Source: Dasypus novemcinctus (lineage: Eukaryota > Chordata > Mammalia > Cingulata > Dasypodidae). From it: 64,000 nt of DNA. Both the position numbers and the translations under genes were made by a program. The stretch is taken from contig NC_080673.1 in NCBI RefSeq assembly GCF_030445035.2, positions 179,347,216 to 179,411,215 on the forward strand. Direction: 5' to 3'. The notes beneath the pieces were generated by a model, which made no database searches, had not been told where the DNA came from, and saw only the letters and a list, made by a program, of their open reading frames with translations. This document shows, piece by piece, positions 1,088-55,019 of the stretch; the stretch's first letter is position 1, and every line of letters begins with the position of its first letter.

Positions 1088-1468
1088 TTTTTTTTTTAAT
1101 TTCTCTCCCTCCCTGCTGTCTCTCTGTGTCCATTCATTGTGTGTTCTTCTGTGACCGCTTCTATCCTTATTAGCAGCACTAGGAATCTGTGTTTCTTTTT
1201 GTTGCGTCAACTCTCTGTGTGTGCAGCGCTATTCTTGGGCAGGCTGCACTTTCTTTTGCCCTGGGTGGTTCTCCTTACAGGGCGCACTCCTTGCACGTGG
1301 GGCTCTCCTCTGCCAGAGACACCCCTGCATGGCACGGCACTTCTTGTGCACATCAGCACTGTGCATGCACCAGCTCCACATGGGTCAAGGAGGCCCGGGG
1401 TTTGAACCATGGACCTCCCATGTGGTAGGTGGATGCCCTATCCATTGGGCCAAGTCTGCTTCCCTTAT
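1088..1468 (-). mobile_element. DAS-type tRNA-derived SINE, near full length
   Basis: Read on the minus strand it begins with a tRNA-like head (AGCAGACTTGGCCCAATGG) with box A/B-like segments, continues through the long GC-rich DAS body, and ends in an A-rich tail seen here as the T-run at 1087-1099. An 11-bp direct repeat, CATTGTATCTT, flanks it at 1077-1087 and 1469-1479, as expected for L1-assisted insertion. The family is known from armadillos (DAS SINEs, reported to derive from a tRNA-Ala gene). The several overlapping small ORFs inside are not genes. Confidence 0.88.
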
Positions 1469-1479
1469 CATTGTATCTT

Positions 1480-2079
1480 GAAGAGGTATTCCAGGCTATT
1501 TAATGGCTGGAACTTGAATGTTTTGTCCAGCACATCCAATGAGCTGGCACTTCTTTGGACACTAGGCTTCACTCAAGTTAAGTGCACCCAGTAATTCCTT
1601 TAACAGCTATGGAAGTGATCAGAGCCACAGAGTATGGTCCCTTCCATTTTGGCTCTAATTGGGAATGAGACTTATTCTCCTGGCAAGTTTTTATCAGAAT
1701 CTGGTCTCTGGGATTAACTTTAGGTAGAAGTAAGTCACAGTTGGGGCCAAAGAGGATTTTGTTCTGGAGTTCCTGGATGATTTGTTGAGTTTTTCCTAGG
1801 TTGATAAAAATTTGGTGAATTACTGGGTCTCTTGATCTACTGCCCATCCTGGGTAATGAAATATTGTTTATAGACCATTTTGAAGAGGCTAAGCTGAAGC
1901 AGGTCTTCTGGAGCTATATGCAGCCTCAGCAAAGCAACAGGTAGACTGGTGATCCAAGGTGATGTATTACAGTTTCTTAGCAAAGTTTAGCCAGAATATG
2001 TTTCAGGGTTTGGTTAGCTCTTTCTACTTTCCCTGAGGATTGGTGTCTCCAGGAACTATGTGGATGAAATTTCACTCTG
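1480..2079 (-). pseudogene. pol: Old ERV pol: integrase C-terminal remnant
   Basis: The minus-strand frame at 1578-1847 carries the typical C-terminal end of a gammaretroviral-type integrase, including the conserved segment EPKWKGPYSV and a following AVKG. Further upstream in minus sense (about 1960-2080) a frame reads the integrase core segment with SSGKVERANQT, the region holding the third catalytic Glu. The rest of integrase lies 7 kb away at 9034-9572, because the young LTR element at 2084-9033 sits between the parts. Stops and frameshifts make it non-functional. Confidence 0.8.
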
Positions 2080-2083
2080 ATGG
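2080..2083. repeat. Left target-site duplication of young ERV (ATGG)
   Basis: ATGG immediately precedes the TG start of the 5' LTR and is repeated at 9034-9037 directly after the CA end of the 3' LTR. A 4-bp duplication is the usual size for class I (gammaretrovirus-like) integrase. Confidence 0.9.
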
Positions 2084-2387
2084 TGATGTGGGCTATGGGT
2101 GGAAGGCTCTTTGTCTCTTCAGAGATAACTAAGTTGTTTGACTTGTGGGTGTGAAACGGTAAGAGGCTGCAGTCCTGCTCTTAGGGACCAGCAGGCTCCA
2201 GTCCCAGGAAATGTTTAACAAAGCAAGGGCTATAAACTTTAAGTATTTAGGGGAAATGCAAAAACCAAGGCTTATCTAAAATGTCTGGAGTCCTTGCTAA
2301 AAGCTTACCTAAGATGTGGAAGAGATATATGCTAATTGAAGCCTATTGAGAACTGAAACAAAGGGACGATTTGGCCTTTCCTCTCTG

Positions 2388-2394
2388 TATAAAA
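2388..2394 (+). promoter_or_regulatory. TATA box of the 5' LTR promoter
   Basis: TATAAAA lies about 70 bp upstream of the AATAAA signal, the order expected at a U3/R junction. The same box recurs at 8874-8880 in the 3' LTR. Confidence 0.8.
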
Positions 2395-2460
2395 GACGTT
2401 TGAAAATCTTGTTCCGGGCTCGGGATTCAAACTGAAAGCTCCCGAGTCCGGCCGGCCGTC

Positions 2461-2466
2461 AATAAA
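2461..2466 (+). terminator. Poly(A) signal of the 5' LTR
   Basis: AATAAA follows the GC-rich R hairpin and the CCGGCCGGCC stretch. In the 3' LTR the copy at 8947-8952 would direct polyadenylation of the genomic RNA. Confidence 0.75.
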
Positions 2467-2551
2467 CCATTTTTCCTTCTCAAAATCATTCCTGAGTCCT
2501 GGCCTCTCTATACTCAAATAATTGAACTTCTCTTAAATTCCACAACATTAA

Positions 2552-2568
2552 TGGCGACCACGAAGGGA
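2552..2568 (+). promoter_or_regulatory. Primer-binding site, Arg-tRNA type
   Basis: Four bases (TTAA) after the LTR end, the 17-mer TGGCGACCACGAAGGGA begins. It matches the complement of the 3' end (including CCA) of mammalian tRNA-Arg(TCG) as I remember that tRNA. The next base departs from the match. Position and TGG start are exactly those of a retroviral minus-strand primer site. Confidence 0.82.
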
Positions 2569-2664
2569 TAATAAATGAAGGCCAGAGACGGTAGCATTTT
2601 GCTGCCCCTTCCAAATCCCCGAGGAAGCCGGGAGGACTCGGGTGAACCCCAAATCTGGGCGCCC

Positions 2665-2684
2665 CTGGATTAAATTTAATCCAG
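2665..2684 (+). promoter_or_regulatory. 20-bp perfect palindrome in the leader, dimerisation-signal candidate
   Basis: The half-site CTGGATTAAA is followed directly by its reverse complement. It lies about 95 bases after the primer-binding site and 105 bases before a consensus splice donor. In gammaretroviruses this interval holds palindromic dimer-linkage and packaging elements. Function is inferred from position and symmetry only. Confidence 0.55.
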
Positions 2685-2784
2685 AAAAGATGTGGGCTCC
2701 ACCAGAATCTTCCCGACAAAATCGAGGGGCAATGGAAGGTCTGAAGAGAAAGATTCTGGGAACGAAAAAGAACTCCGAACATGG

Positions 2785-2796
2785 AAGAAGGTAAGA
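2785..2796 (+). promoter_or_regulatory. Predicted 5' splice donor in the leader
   Basis: The sequence AAG|GTAAGA at 2788-2796 (cut after 2790) is a near-perfect mammalian donor. It sits downstream of the leader palindrome, where retroviruses keep the major donor. No partner acceptor can be established; CTTATTTTCTTCCAG ending at 6078 is one candidate. Confidence 0.5.
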
Positions 2797-2797
2797 C

Positions 2798-5790
2798 TCC
2801 CCGGGTGAGCACAGTCTGGAAGGCCCTAGCTTTAATTGCTAGGAAGGGGAGGCTGATCACCTCCCGAGAGAACCCTAGTAGCCCCAGAAGGCTGGGGGGA
2901 AGCCGTTCTCTCTAGGCTTGGGAAAAGGAGGAAAACCGGGGAAAAGCCCTGGTGTTTTGGGTTTGTCTAACTGCATGTTAGAATCTGGTACTGGTCTTAT
3001 ATCCACTAAAGGAGTGGAGTCTCGATTTTAATAGGAAGGGTATTTATAGGTTCGAGTCCTAATATCCTGGAAATTGGTCTAGATTAAGGAAAACAAAACT
3101 TGGTTACAGGAAAATGGATCGGCTTTTCTGGTGGAGCTTGGTCTGGGTGTAAAGTTTAAACAGTGGAAAAGTCTAGCTGGAATCTTTTGTTATGGTGCTA
3201 ATTTGTGAATGAATTTGCTTTATACCAAATGTTAAGTGTTCTGAGGTTTGTGATGGCTGTGGGGGCAGCCGTGGTGAAAATAAATATATAAACTTGTGAG
3301 TCAGATTAGTGACCTTTGTGCTTCTGTCTGTGTCAGCTCAATGTTAGTGTTGGAGTTGTGTCCTTACATGAAGTAGAATTACAGCTGAGCTGGAGCCCTC
3401 CCTTGCCATTGGCAAGGGGGTGAAATGATTCTGGGGCAAAAGCTGAGGAGTCTAGATGTTTGTGCATGTTCTGGTGTCTTGTCTCTGGTCTGGCCCTTTG
3501 CCGGGGCTTGGAGGCCATCTGTGTCCGCGCCAAGCACCCAAGTCTGTTGGGAATGTCCCAGTCAGGGCGGCTGGGTTCCTGGGAGAGTTGCCAAATTTGA
3601 GTAGGTTCTGTCTGCCCATTTTGGCTGAAAGCTGGAAAGGGGGGAGCGGCTTGCCCCTTTCCAGTGAGTCCACCCTTCTATTCATAAGCCGCATTCCTGT
3701 TTGTTGTGCACCCGACTGCCTGGAAGGGGGGGAAGTGAAGGAGGTGAAAAGCAGAATCAGAATAAATGCAGTAAAGTTCCCTCCTTAGGGTGTCAAAGCC
3801 AAAATACGTTTGCATTCTGCTCAGGTTCTTAGAAGGTATTGTAGTAACCTTAAGGTAAGAGAATGTGTTCTGTGAAGGTAAACTTTGTATTAAGGGTATA
3901 AATAATTATAAAAGTTTTACAAAGCATTGTTTAAGGTATTTAAGTGGCTAATTGCAGAAAGTCATTATTTAACAAAACTGAATTGATAATAATAATAATA
4001 AAAGGCAATTTTATAACAAACTTATTCGGCAGCCAATCTCCCCTGCCAACTTGCTTCCAAAAAAACTGTTTCTGGTATTACATGCTACTAAGTATTTAAA
4101 GTGAAGAAAAGTTCATTATTTTAACAAACTTGTTTAGTATTAATGGCAATTATATGTTGTAAGAAGTTTGCCTGGTAACTCAGTATGTGGGATATATGGA
4201 ATGTGTTTTTATTGTTAAGGCAACAGAAGATGATTTTGTCCTAAGATAAAATGATTGATTATTGGAAAGAGTAGAGTGTGGGACAGAACCTGAATGAATA
4301 CTGAAAGTGTAGAAGGTTTGTGGAAGGGAAATTTTTATGATTAAAATTGAGTAAGATCAATATACAAAGAAAATATTTTATCAATAGCTTCTTGTGCTTT
4401 AACCTCATCATATCCTCAATGTTTGAAGAAGAGTTCTTTTAAAAGAACATTTTATGTTCTAGAAATCAAATCCTGAAAAGTAGCCTTTTATTTCAAACTA
4501 ACTGCAAGAGATTTATTCTTTCACTTTAAAGGAAAAATTAAAGTAATGGTTAAGTTCATTTAATATGTTATAAGTTGAATGAAAGGTATTTAAAGGTGTT
4601 ATAAAATTAATAGGTTTTAAAAAAAATTAATAAAAACTGTAACTAAGAGTTAAAATCATTTATAAATGCATTTATATTGTAAAACAGTGGAAAGACAATA
4701 ACTGAGATTATAGCTGGGTGAATTTAGCCTGAAACTATTATTTAAGTGTAAATTCTACACTAACCTTTCCTTTGTTTATGGTTACTTCAAGCCTAACCTC
4801 ACCCTTTGCCTTTGCCTATGGTTATTTCATAATTGAGAAGAGCTGGGACATCACTGTCTCCTCTTCTGGTATTAGTAACCCTTTCTCTCATGAATTCAAG
4901 TGTAAACTAAATAAATTGCTGCCTGATAGAATAAGGTTAAATGACCACTGGAGTTTTATTATCTCCAAAACCAAAAGGGGGGTGGAGGGGGAGAAGTCTC
5001 CTGCCTTGACGGTCAGTGTTCCTAAGAGTGGCAATTCATGAGAGAAAGCAGTCTGTCTCCCTGAGGCTTCAAATAGCCTCAGTAAATATATATATAAAAC
5101 TAATCTTCTTGCTTATCCAAAATTCTGCTAATTTCAAGGTAAAATATAAAGTTCTAAAACAAAATGGTGCTAAGGCATTGAGAACATTTTGGTTATTACA
5201 ATCCATTAAGTAAGAAAGAAAATTCTTGTGGTAAACTGCATGGTCATAGTGCAAATTAAGAAGAGTTTCAAAAGTCTTTGAAAAGTTTAAAGTAACTAAA
5301 GTCATGTTGTTGTGCCAAACTATTCATGTCTGCTTATTTGCTCAAATTGTTGAGGTTAAATATGCAGTTATATTTATAAATATTCTTAAAGCCCAAATTG
5401 AACTAAGCAGGATGAGAAAGTCATAGAAATCTGATTATGGAAACAATTGGGAAAGGGCCTCCTCTTTGCAAGAGTTTTTAAGGCAAGACTAGGTGTGGCA
5501 GATTAAATCTTATCTACTAGGCTAGGGAATTAAGAATCAGTTTGCCTGGTAATTTCCCAGTTTAAACCTTTTGTCAGCCATAAAATGCAAAAAAAAAAAA
5601 AAAAAATTAGGTTAATTTTCACAGAAGAAAAATGTTGATGTAACCCGGCGGCCTGCTGCCTCAGTCTCCCACTCCCGGGTTGGACAGCAGTGGAGGAGAC
5701 CAGTTTAGGCCAGTCCTATGGGCAGTGGAAGGATGCCCAAGAAGGAGCTACTAAATCGGTGCCATTTCAGCACTAAATTCTATTCCTTAT
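2798..5790 (+). other. Young ERV interior, part 1: no coding region
   Basis: The first kilobase is moderately GC-rich; from about 3800 the sequence becomes AT-rich with small A-runs. Stops are dense in all six frames and no retroviral motif is visible: no CCHC knuckle, DTGA, YXDD or integrase HHCC/DDE. An inverted repeat, CCCTTGCC-ATT-GGCAAGGG, lies at 3400-3418 and a related segment recurs at 47265-47285. An A18-type run is at 5589-5606. A GC-richer island starts at about 5640. Confidence 0.7.
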
Positions 5791-6095
5791 TTGACAAAGG
5801 GGGGGAGCAGGTAAAAACTAAAATGGTTGGAATGTGATAGAAGAAGCAGTTAAATCAAACTTTTGCGTGGGAAAGTTAAATCTCAGATAAGCTGTAACTT
5901 CTGAAGTATCCAATCTATGGAAAAACAGGAAGAGCTTGCATGCTAGGCTTAGGGGTATAAATTGTGTCATTTTTCTTTGTTCGGGGCACCAGCCATATCT
6001 GGCTCTGCGCCCCTTCTTGCAAGATTGAGAATAAAGTATTTTCTTCTCCACAATCTGGTGAGCCTTATTTTCTTCCAGAAGATTTCTTTCCAACA
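5791..6095 (+). repeat. Second polypurine tract followed by an LTR-like segment inside the ERV interior
   Basis: TTGACAAAGGGGGGGAGCAGG at 5791-5811 closely resembles the real polypurine tract at 8554-8569. After it comes an LTR-like segment (about 5824-6095) that starts TGG, has a TATA-like GTATAAAT (5954-5961), a pyrimidine- and GC-richer stretch, AATAAA at 6030-6035, and ends CAACA. It resembles the 3' end of a different LTR element retained inside this one. I see no target duplication around it, so recombination or read-through capture fits better than simple nesting. Confidence 0.45.
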
Positions 6096-8552
6096 AAATA
6101 AGGTAATTAGTGGCTCTATTAACAAATTTCAGTAAGAAAAGGAAAGTCCATAAAAACTATGGAGAGATCTTTCCTGGGTTATGATTTTAAAAAATTAAGT
6201 AATTGTGTAATGTGTTTTGAAACCTGGAAGTCAGTATGCATGTGTTTTAAAACCTGGTAGTCAGTTATGCTTTTAAATTAATAATTTTCATAACTTAAAG
6301 AAAAGAAGTTTTTAGCTTCCTGTAAGGGAAAAAGAGAACATTCCTTGCATAAACTATTATGGTTTCAATTTTATTTAACTTGAGTGTAATCTCCCATAGT
6401 TAATTTATAAACTAAATTAACATATGTACAAATCTTTACGGTAATGAAAATTGTAAGTGAAAATTGTAAGTTCACATTGGTGAAATTAGGCTAAAGGGAA
6501 AAGATTGTAGATATGCTCTCTTAAATAAAGAGTAAATTTCTTTCATTGGTAATTGTAATTTAGTAAGTTTATTTAAACATGAGGTGGCTAGTCAATGTGG
6601 TTATAGTCAATTATAAAGAGTTTGTAAAACATCTTCCAAACTGAAAATGTTTAAATAGTTCTAGTTGTAGAAGTCATTGTTAACTAAAGAAACTTAGATT
6701 GGTATTGGTAGCAGAAATAACTTCATGATAATAAACCTGTCTGAAGGCCACTGCAAAATACACATTTAAGTAAATGATAATAAAAAGTTGTCTTGATTCT
6801 ATTGGAAAAATTGTTTTCATTCTAACAATGAAAAATAATATTTTTCCTCTATTACTAAAGTAAAGCACCTACTGTTATCTTCATAGTAAAATTGTGTAAG
6901 TAAATAGTCATTTGATATATGTATTGCGTTAAGTTGTTTAAAATATATATAAAACAAGGAATAAACTTTAACATTGTCAAACTCTTGTGCATTCGAACCA
7001 GGCCTTGTATACATTACAGGTGGCCTCTCCATGTGAGTTATTGGCTAGGCTGGTCACTGACCCCTCAATTAAAAATATGTGCTATATCAGTCTCTGGTTC
7101 TGCTCCTGAAGTCGATGGAAACTATATTGCAGTTTCAAGCTCCTGCAGCCAATAATGACTCGGTACAGCCAAGTGTACAATGGATATCGCCTCCAGACTG
7201 GCACTGTTCCATGGTGCCAGAGAGCACTATGCACCAGGCTAGTAGAATACTGGAAAATCTCTGGAATACTGGAAGGATGCTGCAACTTGCTCACTGCGTT
7301 GAAGAACATGCTAAGTGGAGCCATGATACCAGGAGACTGTAAGTAAAACTTAAACACAATTGGCATTATGGCCTGCTCTCATGGAGAGATAACATGTAAA
7401 GTATTACAAACCTGAAACTCAAAACTAATAATGGCAACTCTGAATCCTTATGCATTAAGTAATACATTAGTTAATATTAAGTGCTGTACTTTTATCCTGT
7501 ACTAAATATATGCCTAATAATTGTAATGTTATCTTTTCTATTTTGGATCAAGTGCAGAAGTATATTAGACATGTTAAATTCCTGGTAAAATCATTTTCTA
7601 AACAGTTAATAACATGTCTATAGAATAAGGTGGCAGTCTCAGCCAGTCTCAAGTTAGCAAAAGTGAGGCTTGCTTGCTGATGGTGAGTCACCTATTGAAC
7701 AAGTCAAAATTGCTAGAAATTGTACAATGAAAACCAAGGTGTAAAAATCTTTATTCTGTAGTTCTGATCACTCCCACAGGTGAAAACTAAGAGTATTTCC
7801 AAATTAGTGTTCTAATCCTGAGTGAAGCCAGTTGCCCAAGGAGTGCCAGTTCACCAGGAGCATCTGACAGAGCGAATGAGTGTCAATCATTGAACAGCTT
7901 GGAATGTGTCTTCAGACAAAGCTAAGTGTCTGTTGCAATTTCTCTCTAAAGATGGATAACTTAAAAAAGAATATATATGCTGTTCCCACCAGCTTTTAAG
8001 GAATGCCATCTTTATAGGCATCTAATCTTGTCTATCTCTGTAATCCAATGTGTCCTCTTTTAAAAACGGGTATTCCAAATTTTTAATTAAGTTTGTTTCT
8101 TTCAGAGTGAACATCTTATTAACCATATGAAAACTTCATTCAACTTCGTACAGAATGCCAGATCCATCTTCCTCCAGTTAGAATAAATTAAAGAGTTTTT
8201 ACACCTTATTAGGCAATGACTACAGCCCATGGCCAGCAGGAAGCAGTTACAGAAAAGAGATCGTCTCCCTTCAGCACCCCTTTTAAATTAAAGGTGTAAA
8301 CTCTTTAAGAGTAAAATAAAAGTAATAGATGGATCTGGAACCTGACTGGAAATCCACGTGAGTGCCAGTGGCAGCAGAATAACTGCGGGAGGCCCCTGCC
8401 CAAGATTCTGCTGTCCAGAATGAAAAGTTCTAAACTTCTAAAAACGGTCCTTGATGCTGTACTAAAGACTGATAAATAATCAGTCAAGACAACAAACAGT
8501 CATCCACCTCATAGCTACAACAATAATTATGCCAAAGCTTAGCAAGTAAACT
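6096..8552 (+). other. Young ERV interior, part 2: no coding region
   Basis: AT-rich, with only short frames (at most 94 codons, on the antisense strand). The portion 8100-8550, just upstream of the polypurine tract, is where env would end in an intact provirus, but no transmembrane-subunit motif can be recognised. I see no obvious captured host exon. Confidence 0.7.
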
Positions 8553-8553
8553 T

Positions 8554-8569
8554 TGACAAAGGGGGGGAA
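8554..8569 (+). promoter_or_regulatory. Polypurine tract of young ERV
   Basis: GACAAAGGGGGGGAA abuts the TG start of the 3' LTR. This is the canonical plus-strand priming position. Confidence 0.9.
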
Positions 8570-9033
8570 TGATGTGGGCTATGGGTGGAAGGCTCTTTGT
8601 CTCTTCAGAGATAACTAAGTTGTTTGACTTGTGGGTGTGAAACGGTAAGAGGCTGCAGTCCTGCTCTTAGGGACCAGCAGGCTCCAGTCCCAGGAAATGT
8701 TTAACAAAGCAAGGGCTATAAACTTTAAGTATTTAGGGGAAATGCAAAAACCAAGGCTTATCTAAAATGTCTGGAGTCCTTGCTAAAAGCTTACCTAAGA
8801 TGTGGAAGAGATATATGCTAATTGAAGCCTATTGAGAACTGAAACAAAGGGACGATTTGGCCTTTCCTCTCTGTATAAAAGACGTTTGAAAATCTTGTTC
8901 CGGGCTCGGGATTCAAACTGAAAGCTCCCGAGTCCGGCCGGCCGTCAATAAACCATTTTTCCTTCTCAAAATCATTCCTGAGTCCTGGCCTCTCTATACT
9001 CAAATAATTGAACTTCTCTTAAATTCCACAACA
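8570..9033 (+). repeat. 3' LTR of young ERV
   Basis: 464 bp, base-for-base the same as the 5' LTR by line comparison (constant offset 6486, no gap). TATA at 8874-8880 and AATAAA at 8947-8952. It is followed by the right copy of the target duplication ATGG (9034-9037). Confidence 0.95.
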
Positions 9034-9037
9034 ATGG

Positions 9038-9572
9038 CACCTGAAGGATCTTGGGCTATTTTGCTAGTAAAGGCTGGCCCATTGTCACTTTGGAGGGACT
9101 TAGGCAGCCCAAAACTTGGGACGATTTCCTTTAGGAGGTCTTTAGCCACTTTGTTTGCTGTTTCCCTTCTAGTAGAAAATGCTTGTATCCATCCAGTAAA
9201 AGTATCTACCAATACTAAGAGGTAGTTATATCCCTGGCAAGATGACAAGTAGGTAAAGTTTATCTACCTATCCTTTCCAGGGTATGATCCTCACAGCTGG
9301 ACAGGGGTCTTAAATGAGGAGGTGTGTTGAGCTCCATTATTTGGGTCATTAATTGCACACAAGGAACAACTTTTGGTGACTTCTTTGATTGTTTTTGCCA
9401 GGACCTGGCCCTCAAAAACGTTTTTGACTATGTTTGTAAGGGCATCCTTCCCTAGATGAGTGGCTTGGTGAAATTCGTGAAGGATCTTCCACTGCTCTGC
9501 TTCCAGCAGATAGAATTCGGCTTCCTTAACAAGCCACTCACTAACTTCCAGGATGAAATCTAGGCTGGCCAC
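9038..9572 (-). pseudogene. pol: Old ERV pol: integrase zinc-binding and catalytic core remnant
   Basis: On the minus strand 9572-9291 carries an HHCC-type zinc-binding remnant (LHEFHQATHLG then CSLCA). 9248-9038 carries core segments LVLVDTFTGW and SDNGPAFTS, with the first two catalytic Asp positions. The third part of integrase continues at 2079 on the far side of the young ERV. The two parts adjoin at the ATGG target. Frameshifts between 9248 and 9291 show the gene was already dead. Confidence 0.85.
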
Positions 9573-10150
9573 TTTAGTTTTCTGCTCATCCTGGGTATAT
9601 TCTGGAGGCCCAGGTAGTATGGCAGATTCTAGGTTGAGGGCTAGGAGGAAGACTTGGGTTTGTGCTGTGGCTTTAACTGCTGTGTCTACTTGGGCATTTC
9701 ACCTAGCTATGGCAGTGTCTGTTTTCTGGTGCCCTGGGCAATGCATCCCTGCTATTTCTTGGGGCAACAGAGTCTTAAATTGAGAGGCCACTGCATAGCC
9801 TACTCTTTCAGTTTCTTCCCTGATAAAATTGCTTCCATCGGTCAACCACTCAAAGCCTGGGTTCTCAGTTACTTGCAGATAGAAAGACTTGTTTGGGTTA
9901 GGAACTTCTAATGCTGAAGGGTTAATTAAGGCCTGTTTCAAGGTATGGAAGGTCTTTTCCCCTTGTCTTTTCCCCATTCTAAGGGTTGCTTATTAGCCCC
10001 AGCAATATCACTGTATAATAGCCAGGCTATTTTGCCAAACCTGAGTATCCACAGTTTACAGTCCACAGGGAAGAGGTTTAGTAAGCAGCCTAGACCTTGA
10101 TTTTCCATCAACTCTTAAGATAGGGCATGCCAAGATGAAAGAGGTCTGGA
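9573..10150 (-). pseudogene. pol: Old ERV pol: thumb/connection and RNase H remnants with deletions
   Basis: The minus-strand frame near 9977-9699 reads connection-like sequence (TFHTLKQALINPSAL) and then, after only a few residues, RNase H sequence (LTDGSNF). It soon reaches a late RNase H motif, HCPGHQK. In an intact pol these motifs are hundreds of codons further apart, so two internal deletions are evident. The polymerase palm with YXDD is absent: too little sequence remains between this segment and the protease remnant to hold it. Confidence 0.75.
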
Positions 10151-10345: not shown

Positions 10346-10480
10346 GGAGCAATGCACTCCCAGACTCACTGCCCATCCTTTCTACACCTGAGGCAAGGCC
10401 CTAGCTGATGCCTGCAGTGAAGCAGATTGAGGCAGCCATGCTTCCTGTGGCCAACCTCTCCACACTTGAAGCAGGTTCCT
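10346..10480 (-). pseudogene. gag: Old ERV nucleocapsid: two CCHC knuckles, second one broken
   Basis: Knuckle 1 (10473-10432, minus) keeps the C-X2-C-X4-H-X4-C pattern: CFKCGEVGHRKHGC. Knuckle 2 (10395-10354) keeps the three Cys, but the His position reads Gln and the next codon is a stop. Together they mark the end of gag. Confidence 0.75.
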
Positions 10481-11284
10481 GCTGAAGTGGAGCCTGATCT
10501 TGGGTAGTTCTGAGGTGACAGGATGCCTTTAATGGTGACTGCAGAAAGATAAGTCTATTCCTGGGCCTTCAGCCTACTGCTCCATACCTCTTCCATATTG
10601 GTGGTATGGTCTTGATGGTTGAAGTTTGAGAAGGCTGTTTCTAAAAGGTGTTCAGGAGAGTTTGAGGACCCAAAGAAAGCTTCGTAGCTTCCTATGGATA
10701 TCTGGAGCAGACTGGCTAATGAAATGAGTTCCTATGAGGATTTGTCCTTCATTAGAGTTAGGATGTACCAGAGTATATTTCTTCACTACATCTACCAACC
10801 TTCCCTGAAATAAGGCTGGGTTTTCATCCTACTTCTGAGTAATTTCCCTGAATTTACTGTAATTGACCACTTTGGTAATGTACTTCCTCATTCCTTGGAG
10901 GAGACAGACGACCATATGGTTTCTAGTCTTCAGATCTTCCTTTCCCTTTTGATAGTAACACCTAGGAACTGTATTAGGAATTGCAACTGCTTCCACTGCA
11001 TACTCTTTAGGCTGTGGGGCAGCCAGTTTATCCAAATGCCCTGTGCCTCAGTCCAGATGTGGAGCTTTTCCTCCAGCATGCAGCAAGTTGAAAGAATAGT
11101 GTGCATTTCATCCCATGATATTTCAAAAATCATTGGGAGGTGCTTGAACCCCTCAGCAAATTTGCTGAAGTCCTCAGAAAACCAACCTAACTTCTCTTTT
11201 CACTGTGCCAGGTCAGACATAGAGAAAAGGGTATATACCCTAATGGTTCCTACATTCCCATTAGCTACTTCCTTTAAAGGATAG
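10481..11284 (-). pseudogene. gag: Old ERV gag: capsid remnant
   Basis: Minus-strand frames carry capsid-like segments of gammaretrovirus type: a part with ISWDEMHTILSTCCMLEEK (about 11120-11065) and a part with VNYSKFREITQK then NPALF (about 10870-10815). Several stops and frameshifts separate them. The frame at 10895-11284 on the plus strand is a shadow of this remnant. Confidence 0.75.
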
Positions 11285-20826: not shown

Positions 20827-22107
<1,281 letters not shown>

Positions 22108-46544: not shown

Positions 46545-46950
46545 TTTTTTAAGATTCATTTTTATTTATTTCTCTCCCCTTCCCTCCTGTTGTCTGCTCT
46601 TTGTGTCCATTTCCTATGTGTTCTTGGGCATCCACTTGCATTATCCAGCAGCACTGGGAAACTGCATCTTTTTATTGTTGCATCATCTTGCTGTATCAGC
46701 CCTCATGTGTGTGGCGCACCTCCTGGGTGGGCTGTGCTTTTTTCATGCAGATGGCTCTCCTTGTGGGGTACACACCTTGTGTGTGGGGCACCCACATGCA
46801 GGAGCACCACTGTATGGCAGAGCTCTCCTTGCATGCAGCAGCACTGCACATGGGCCAGCTTACTACATGGGTCAGGAGGCCCTCGTATCAAATACTGGAC
46901 CCTCCATATGGTAGATGATTGCTCTATCTGTTGAGCCACATCCACTTTCC
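46545..46950 (-). mobile_element. DAS-type SINE, full length, inserted in L1
   Basis: Antisense tail 'aagattcatttttatttatt', full DAS body, and tRNA-like head ending TTGAGCCACATCCACTTTCC. L1 sequence continues after it at about 46965-47095. Confidence 0.85.
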
Positions 46951-47095: not shown

Positions 47096-47520
47096 GATGG
47101 CTGACTGGAAGACCCTCCCTAAGATTATGCCATTCAGAAAAAAGACTTCCTCTGGAAGCCAGGAGAAGCCCCAGAGATTCCCCCAAGGACTTCATCATTG
47201 GGTCCTCCTGGGAGATAGATGGGAAAAATGAGCAATCAAAACAGTAAACAGTGGAATTCCTCCCTTGCCATTAGCAAAGGGGTGGAATAACTAACGGTTC
47301 AATAGGCAGGCCCCAGGCTGAGCTCTCTCTCTTGTGTGCTCTCATTCCTGTGAACTTGTGCCTGCCATCAGCACACCACCCTCACTGTTTTTTCTCTGCT
47401 ATGTGGCCATGCAAGTAAACCTGGGGATTTATAAACCATAATGGGAAACTGTAGCCTGTAAATCAGTCTTTTTTTTTATCACACTTCAACCCCTTCCTCT
47501 CTACCTAGGACCCTTGATCT
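47096..47520 (+). repeat. LTR-like or ERV-leader-like segment, family unknown
   Basis: Contains CCTCCCTTGCCATTAGCAAA followed by GGGGTGGAATAA, closely matching 3397-3428 in the young ERV. Later it has 'ctatgtggccatgcaagtaa' and TTTATAAACC, reminiscent of an LTR 3' part. No second copy of the whole segment and no target duplication can be shown. Confidence 0.35.
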
Positions 47521-54609: not shown

Positions 54610-55019
54610 GGAGGTGGATTTGGCTCAATTGATGGGGCATTTGCCTACCATGTTGGAAGTCCAGGGTTCAGAGCCAGGGCCTCCTGGCCCATGTTATGGG
54701 CTGGCCCATGCATGGTGCCAATGCGTGCAGGGAGTGCTGTGCCATACAGGGGTATCCCCCACATAAGGGATCCCCACATGCAAGGAGTGTGCCCTATAAG
54801 GAGAGCTGCCCAGCGTGAAAAGAGTGCAGCCTGCCCAGGAGTGGTGCTGCATGGAGAGCTGACACAGCAGTATGGCACAGCAGAAGGAGACACAGGTTCC
54901 TGGTGCCTCTAACAGGAACGCAGGCAGATGCAGAGGAGCGCACAGTGAATGGACTCAGGGGGTAGACAGCTGGGGGCAGGGGAGAGAGAAATAAATAAAA
55001 AAAGATAAATCTTAAAAAA
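54610..55019 (+). mobile_element. DAS-type SINE, full length
   Basis: tRNA-like head GGAGGTGGATTTGGCTCAAT with box B-like GGGTTCAGAGCC, complete DAS body, and A-rich tail with AATAAATAAAAAAAG. Flanked by AAAGTTTAATGCT (54597-54609) and AAAGCTTAATGCT (55020-55032), a 13-bp duplication with one mismatch. It is the best-preserved SINE in the window and the main lineage marker. Confidence 0.93.

What the first reader, a model, noticed from the sequence alone, without database searches (positions are those of the whole stretch)
2084..9033. Recently inserted LTR element with complete retroviral cis-signals and no genes
Both 464-bp LTRs read identical, with a matching 4-bp target duplication, primer site, polypurine tract, TATA and poly(A) signals, and a leader with palindrome and splice donor. 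Yet 6 kb of interior has no gag, pro, pol or env remnant. Identical LTRs mean very recent retrotransposition, so armadillo-lineage cells recently held an ERV able to package and copy this RNA in trans. This is a xenarthran counterpart in kind to VL30/ETn and MER4-type parasites of retroviruses, and may be undescribed.
Basis: partly seen in the sequence, partly recalled or inferred. Interest (0 to 1): 0.85.

Follow-up and report, generated by a model that had tools for sequence, protein, structure and literature searches.

The report
Gene-less, recently active retrovirus-like element family
This stretch is one copy of a family of retrovirus-like mobile elements that carry no genes of their own, spread very recently through what looks like an armadillo genome, and probably did so by borrowing the proteins of a related, still gene-bearing virus family in the same genome.

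Summary
Both 464-bp LTRs are identical, with a 4-bp duplication, a tRNA-Arg primer site and a polypurine tract. It sits antisense inside the integrase gene of an older ERV. "No pol remnant" is wrong: 7725-7926 is a decayed end of integrase. Block 5586-6095 is a fossil LTR of another family. No other gene remnant was detected.

The host genome (3.61 Gb) could be searched. At least 40 near-identical LTRs exist. In 11 full-length copies, selected by LTR similarity, LTR pairs show 1 difference in 11 x 464 sites, and 10 of 11 have 4-bp duplications. Linkage between variable sites decays from r2 0.67 below 50 bp to 0.06 beyond 3 kb, as expected if different RNAs are co-packaged and templates switch.

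The same genome holds a similarly young gammaretrovirus-like family with long open pol frames. Its leader is 71% identical to the element's and fits a common predicted fold. It primes from a different tRNA-Arg. It is the best helper candidate; trans-packaging is inferred, not shown.

Verdict: an apparently undescribed member of a known kind (non-autonomous class I LTR element), with an unusually direct recombination signal and a named helper candidate.

The parts
2080..2083 (.). target-site duplication ATGG, left
2084..2547 (+). 5' LTR, 464 bp, TG..CA; TATAAA 2388, AATAAA 2461, GC-rich hairpin between them
2552..2569 (+). primer binding site, 17 of 18 to tRNA-Arg(UCG)
2577..2929 (+). leader homologous to the leader of a gene-bearing gammaretrovirus-like family in the same genome (242 of 340 aligned bases identical)
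2665..2684 (+). palindromic stem-loop, candidate dimer-initiation site
2788..2796 (+). candidate splice donor; GGTAAGA kept in the helper candidate's leader
2930..5585 (+). non-coding interior; no gag homology detected
5586..6095 (+). fossil LTR of a different, abundant ERV family, fixed inside the interior
6096..7724 (+). non-coding interior of unknown origin
7725..7926 (+). decayed remnant of the 3' end of pol (integrase C-terminal region)
   Evidence: reference piece identified
8552..8569 (+). polypurine tract
8570..9033 (+). 3' LTR, identical to the 5' LTR
9034..9037 (.). target-site duplication ATGG, right
1581..1913 (-). older host ERV: integrase C-terminal part (MLVIN_C, below Pfam's cut-off), left of the insertion
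9036..9989 (-). older host ERV: integrase core, H2C2 zinc finger, RNase H remnant (the last below Pfam's cut-off), right of the insertion

Best explanation
It is a copy of a non-autonomous class I (gammaretrovirus-like) LTR element family. The element keeps the cis-signals (promoter and poly(A) in the LTR, tRNA-Arg primer site, structured leader, polypurine tract, LTR ends) and has no coding capacity. Pol II transcribes it from its LTR. The RNA is probably packaged through its leader, as a dimer, by Gag of a related gene-bearing ERV, reverse-transcribed with that virus's enzyme, and inserted with a 4-bp duplication by its integrase. Different copies are co-packaged and recombine during copying. 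Shown: structure, youth, copy family, a recombination signal between copies, and a young gene-bearing family with a homologous leader. Inferred: transcription, packaging, template switching as the cause of that signal, and which helper.
For: LTR pair 0/464 and TSD. The LTR query gave 1623 first-look candidates; 40 were scored, each matching positions 1-464 (827-838 bits; the query itself 838), and 22 of the 40 form 11 pairs whose starts lie 6.45-6.72 kb apart. Of these 11 copies, 10 have 0 LTR-LTR differences and one has 1; 10 of 11 have 4-bp TSDs. Linkage decay among the 11 copies: four-gamete conflict 3 of 55 site pairs at 1-50 bp, 282 of 350 at 3-6.1 kb; correlation of r2 with log distance -0.687, reached by 0 of 2000 shuffles; same with CpG sites dropped. 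Gene-bearing family: 150 MLVIN_C matches scored of 4015 candidates, 12 of the 150 in open frames of at least 1200 aa; 0 of 14 control genomes ring; both LTR pairs examined are near-identical (0 of 449 and 1 of 447). Leader homology E 4.7e-24 to 7e-23 in 3 of 3 5'-end loci; common fold of 53 pairs kept in 99.6% of cells, 6 pairs with changes on both sides. The PPT cores are alike (CAAAGGGGGG(G)AA) and both LTRs begin TGAT.
Against: No RNA, particle or transposition data. The gene-bearing family's primer site is for another tRNA-Arg isoacceptor and its LTR aligns only in the 3' part (106 of 155); so it is a relative, not the parent. The fold was predicted from the same alignment, which holds two lineages (5 distinct rows), and the count of 6 pairs with both-sided change is reached by 61 of 500 shuffles (percentage paired, cells with both-sided change and covariation score by 0 of 500). 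Gene conversion could imitate part of the recombination signal. The 11 copies were chosen for LTR similarity. Only 1.5 kb at each end of the other 10 copies was read. One copy (C25) lacks a TSD.
Confidence: 0.9

Rival explanations
1. A defective provirus of an autonomous family with the same LTR: gene-bearing members exist, and this copy is an internally deleted or rearranged member.
For: Leader and LTR 3' part are related to a gene-bearing family; a 200-bp pol remnant exists.
Against: All 11 pairs among the 40 scored LTRs are spaced 6.45-6.72 kb, none longer. The end pieces read share this interior at 98.3-99.6% of aligned bases. An older relative (L047, blocks at 75-83% identity) already carries the decayed pol end and the fossil LTR. 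There, 24 ORFs gave no retroviral family and ERV pieces gave only a 100-bp antisense match to locus L020 (E 5.9e-9) and a weak match to L010 (E 0.0013) besides pol end and LTR. Leader divergence from the gene-bearing family is 29%.
Confidence: 0.08
2. The youth is an illusion: LTR identity and shared variants come from gene conversion or assembly collapse.
For: Conversion can also break linkage; LTR diversity (mean 0.0031) is below interior diversity (0.0084 and 0.0139) in the chosen copies.
Against: The LTR-LTR match holds in 11 separate genomic places, 10 of them with their own 4-bp TSD. A low LTR diversity is expected from choosing copies by LTR.
Confidence: 0.04
3. The helper is another gammaretrovirus-like family, not the one with the homologous leader.
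For: The primer tRNA isoacceptor differs. The element's pol remnant matches the family that hosts the insertion, while pieces of loci L035, L010, L018 and L020 gave no hit to the interior. The 30 MLVIN_C loci fetched fall into four groups at 90% identity.
Against: The candidate is young, has open pol frames, and shares a 350-bp leader. Leaders of other families were not compared.
Confidence: 0.4

Closest known systems
VL30 (mouse)
   Same: Full-length copies with intact LTR, PBS and PPT, no coding capacity; 42 of 86 full-length copies have identical LTRs (PMC4859993, passages read).
   Different: Mouse; primer sites Gly, Gln, Pro, Met, Thr; degenerate gag and pol regions are recognisable. Here tRNA-Arg and only a 200-bp pol end.
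ERV-MER41E and other MER41-type class I ERVs (primates)
   Same: Class I, 4-bp TSD, tRNA-Arg primer, large deletion, judged non-autonomous; MER41-like ERVs colonised other mammals independently (PMC11905727, passages and section 12 read).
ERV2N1_CHo of the two-toed sloth
   Same: Young LTR family in a xenarthran (402 copies under 1% divergence, PMC3183009).
   Different: Class II by its name; this one has 4-bp TSDs, a tRNA-Arg primer and a gammaretroviral pol remnant.
ETn/MusD (mouse)
   Same: Gene-less element mobilised by a coding relative sharing leader and LTR (recalled).
   Different: Class II; there the LTRs of the partners are near-identical (recalled), here only distantly related.

Membership tests
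non-autonomous LTR retrotransposon | paired LTRs with TSD, PBS and PPT | tested here: met
non-autonomous LTR retrotransposon | no coding capacity in the interior | tested here: met
   for this copy; only 1.5 kb at each end compared in 10 other copies
non-autonomous LTR retrotransposon | multiplied as a family | tested here: met
non-autonomous LTR retrotransposon | moved by proteins of a helper | tested here: inconclusive
   helper candidate with homologous leader found; no packaging data
class I ERV (gammaretrovirus-like) | 4-bp TSD | tested here: met
   10 of 11 copies
class I ERV (gammaretrovirus-like) | pol homology to gammaretroviruses | tested here: met
   7725-7926 by way of the host ERV, whose own piece matches MLVIN_C (E 2.6e-5, below Pfam's cut-off) and PDB 2m9u (E 0.0059)
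VL30 | VL30 sequence homology | not testable with these tools
   no VL30 sequence fetched; primer tRNA differs from the five types reported
MER41-like ERVs | sequence similarity to MER41 LTR or interior | not testable with these tools
   no Dfam/Repbase on hand; primer tRNA and TSD length agree with published values for MER41E

The most novel reading that the evidence does not exclude
A long-lived, gene-less retroviral parasite lineage, still active or nearly so in the armadillo, that behaves like a freely recombining population of RNAs. It has kept little but LTR, primer site and a packaging leader whose fold has co-varied with that of a young gammaretrovirus-like helper, while older subfamilies of the same gene-less element record earlier waves over perhaps tens of millions of years.
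Probability: 0.45. Interest if true: 0.75.

Novelty: new member of a known kind. Interest (0 to 1): 0.6.

Why it matters
It gives a mammal outside rodents and primates with both partners of a parasite-helper pair seemingly active in recent time, so packaging specificity can be compared between two natural leaders 29% apart in sequence but alike in predicted fold. The linkage decay among dispersed copies turns genome copies into a record of RNA co-packaging and template switching. It also conflicts with a 2011 table that lists no transposable-element family under 1% divergence in armadillo (PMC3183009, section 9), while agreeing with a 2014 table giving 2570 of 5449 armadillo ERV loci to the last 10 My (PMC4102558, passages).

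Tried and rejected
An internal polypurine tract followed by a fossil 3' LTR, suggested by an exact 17-mer shared by 5790-5806 and 8552-8568, was rejected: the fossil LTR begins at 5586, the 17-mer lies inside it, and the 17 loci examined carry 11-15 of 17 matches at a corresponding place. An LTR was rightly suspected there from TATA, hairpin and AATAAA spacing (0 of 852 300-nt tiles on either strand of 12601-64000).

Weak matches of the interior to 47105-47311 (E 0.0007 to 0.45) were judged chance on reading the alignments. Rfam: 0 hits in the window at gathering threshold and 0 in the element at E up to 1. IMG/VR: 47 stretches matched patterns of the host integrase piece but none encodes a relative, 0 PBS matches, one PPT match that was not followed up. 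Interior ORF matches to Pfam were nine unrelated families, best E 0.0016. Twenty-four of the 55 ORFs listed in the older relative L047 (sense strand, not all of them) gave no retroviral family. The left integrase fragment alone found nothing in the PDB at E up to 10. The first local-alignment controls used too lenient gap costs and were replaced. A search with interior pieces to get an LTR-independent sample of copies did not complete.
Full report
Observation. The two LTRs (2084-2547, 8570-9033) are identical over 464 bp and are flanked by ATGG on both sides. The PBS at 2552-2569 matches the 3' end of tRNA-Arg(UCG) in 17 of 18 positions; the tRNA was recalled and its identity checked with ARAGORN. 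No such site occurs in 100 shuffles of the window. The PPT is at 8552-8568, with TATAAA at 2388, AATAAA at 2461 and a perfect 20-nt palindrome at 2665-2684. The leader 2548-2847 folds better than most shuffles (z -2.5, 5 of 200 as good).

Setting. The element lies antisense inside the integrase gene of an older, decayed gammaretrovirus-like ERV. Integrase core (rve, E 8.5e-14), H2C2 finger (E 1.1e-6) and an RNase H remnant (E 1.1e-4, below Pfam's cut-off) lie to its right on the minus strand, and the integrase C-terminal piece (MLVIN_C, E 2.6e-5, below the cut-off) to its left. PDB matches agree: retroviral integrases for the core piece, and 2m9u, named integrase p46, for the C-terminal piece at E 0.0059. 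A 27-aa piece next to the insertion found nothing. That the window is armadillo is plausible but not proven: a tRNA-like SINE at 1091-1465 with two further long copies in the window looks like the DAS-SINE of armadillo (recalled; PMC3183009 only cites that family). The genome held for the window has 3.61 Gb in 546 contigs and no name.

Interior. Of 105 stop-to-stop ORFs of 30 aa or more, none matches a retroviral Pfam family. At DNA level, however, 7725-7926 matches the flanking ERV's pol end, in the same sense: nhmmer E 6.4e-15, alignment score 290 against a shuffle maximum of 151 in 150; the other flank, with upstream genes, shows nothing (score 95, 135 of 150 shuffles as high). The same remnant is in an older relative of the element, L047 (E 7.6e-11); 82 query pieces from ERVs found nothing else in the interior at E up to 0.01, with 0 hits in reversed controls. 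So 'no pol remnant' is wrong, but no gene is left. Detection of gag, RT or env remnants is limited: Pfam missed this pol end too, so equally decayed pieces could hide.

Block 5586-6095 was suspected to be an LTR from its TATA-hairpin-AATAAA spacing, a pattern found in 0 of 852 tiles on each strand elsewhere. The genome search bore this out: a copy of this block had 2578 first-look candidates, 40 scored, the query itself and 39 others at 88-90%. Of 11 plus-strand loci compared, 10 match the element only over 5595 to 6090-6096, and one (L054) goes on as an older copy of the element. In 16 loci whose edges were printed, the block begins with TG and mostly ends with CA. My scan found 4-5 bp duplications in 7 of 26 loci and none in 19. 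In older relatives L047 and L054 the block is bounded by AAAA on both sides, which in such sequence is weak. It is best read as a solo LTR of another ERV family that landed in an ancestor of this family and has been copied along since. CpG content is mosaic: leader and LTR have observed/expected 0.38-0.43, the AT-rich core 0.07-0.17, the leader-core contrast being p 4.8e-8 by Fisher test. The core does not differ from the rest of the window in this respect (p 1.0), as expected of long residence in methylated DNA or of host origin; which of the two is open.

Family and age. The LTR query gave 1623 first-look candidates; the 40 scored all match positions 1-464 with 827-838 bits, and 22 of them form 11 pairs whose starts are 6.45-6.72 kb apart; 18 have no partner in the list, among them one solo LTR with TTAC on both sides (L002). 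For the 11 pairs (window copy included) the LTR-LTR differences are 0 in 10 and 1 in one (C6); 10 of 11 have a 4-bp duplication, C25 has none. One difference in 11 x 464 sites gives a mean age of about 0.05 My, 95% upper bound 0.21 My at 2.2e-9 per site per year; the sample was chosen for LTR similarity, so this describes the youngest members. For the window copy alone the 95% upper bound is 1.47 My. PBS sequences are 17-18 of 18 to tRNA-Arg(UCG) in 10 of 11 copies and 14 of 18 in C6 (counted). An older LTR subfamily, represented by L047's LTR, 82% identical to the young LTR, had 5830 first-look candidates, 40 scored: the query itself and 39 others at 93-95% to it. L047 shares interior blocks with the window copy at 75-83% identity, including the fossil LTR and the pol remnant. 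If neutral rates apply, the gene-less lineage is tens of millions of years old; this is a rough inference.

Recombination. In 1.5 kb after the 5' LTR and 1.5 kb before the 3' LTR of the 11 copies, distances at the two ends are uncorrelated (Mantel r -0.01). Of 39 informative sites, four-gamete conflict rises from 3 of 55 site pairs at 1-50 bp, through 19 of 76, 88 of 133 and 99 of 127, to 282 of 350 at 3-6.1 kb, and mean r2 falls from 0.67 to 0.06; the correlation of r2 with log distance (-0.687) was reached by 0 of 2000 position shuffles, and dropping CpG sites leaves 32 sites and -0.734. Columns within 3 of a gap were dropped. Retroviral template switching between unlike RNAs in one particle explains this directly; gene conversion between dispersed copies is a weaker rival.

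Helper candidate. A search with MLVIN_C had 4015 first-look candidates, 150 scored, 12 of these in open frames of at least 1200 aa, and rang in 0 of 14 control genomes. Of the 30 loci fetched, 27 join one group at 90% identity (single linkage); five of the 12 long frames lie in that group, the other seven were not fetched. Two copies of the group have LTR pairs with 0 of 449 and 1 of 447 differences. Their leader matches element 2585-2929 at E 4.7e-24 to 7e-23 in 3 of 3 5'-end loci; 242 of 340 aligned bases of 2577-2929 are identical, and the LTR aligns at 106 of 155 in its 3' part. PPT cores are alike and both LTRs begin TGAT. A common fold of 53 pairs, predicted from the alignment itself, is kept in 99.6% of cells, 6 pairs with changes on both sides; slid versions keep 34.6-57.3% of cells. 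In the shuffle control the percentage paired, the cells with both-sided change and the covariation score are reached by 0 of 500, but the 6 pairs by 61 of 500. The alignment has only two lineages (5 distinct rows), so this is support, not proof. The group's PBS fits tRNA-Arg(ACG) at 18 of 18 (tRNA recalled, ARAGORN-checked), so the two partners use different arginine tRNAs. By its LTRs this family moved in about the same recent period as the element.

Literature. VL30 is the nearest in behaviour (PMC4859993, passages); ERV-MER41E is the nearest in class, TSD and primer (PMC11905727, passages and section 12). A 2011 table shows 0 armadillo families under 1% divergence with at least five members (PMC3183009, section 9); the 40 LTRs listed here appear to make such a family. 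A 2014 survey lists 2570 armadillo ERV loci younger than 10 My and calls the species an outlier (PMC4102558, passages). Nine paper searches, judged by their listings, showed no report of this family; only open-licence papers are held and Repbase/Dfam could not be searched, so novelty is provisional.

Noticed in passing
window 20827-22104 +: TBL1XR1-like copy with a 426-aa frame open from stop to stop (best PDB match 4lg9, E 3.9e-265 over residues 41-423); looks like an intronless, processed retrocopy.
   Followed up: partly
window 1581-1913, 9036-9989 and 10369-10554, minus strand: Decayed gammaretrovirus-like ERV that hosts the insertion; integrase, RNase H and a gag zinc-knuckle trace (the knuckle below Pfam's cut-off).
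   Followed up: partly
window 1091-1465 -, 46561-46950 -, 54611-55000 +: Copies of one tRNA-like SINE, resembling the armadillo DAS-SINE by recall.
   Followed up: partly
L047 (G000:C3:25147000-25156900): An older gene-less relative of the element (blocks at 75-83% identity) with about 2.2 kb more between the parts matching 3834 and 4622 of the element; content unidentified; also a 100-bp antisense match to a piece of locus L020 (E 5.9e-9).
   Followed up: partly
genome copy C6:45354187-45361353: Family member with a more changed primer site (14 of 18) and the only LTR pair of the 11 with a difference.
   Followed up: no
window 5589-5606: A run of 18 A at the start of the fossil LTR, where the older copies L047 and L054 read a shorter mixed A-rich stretch.
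   Followed up: partly
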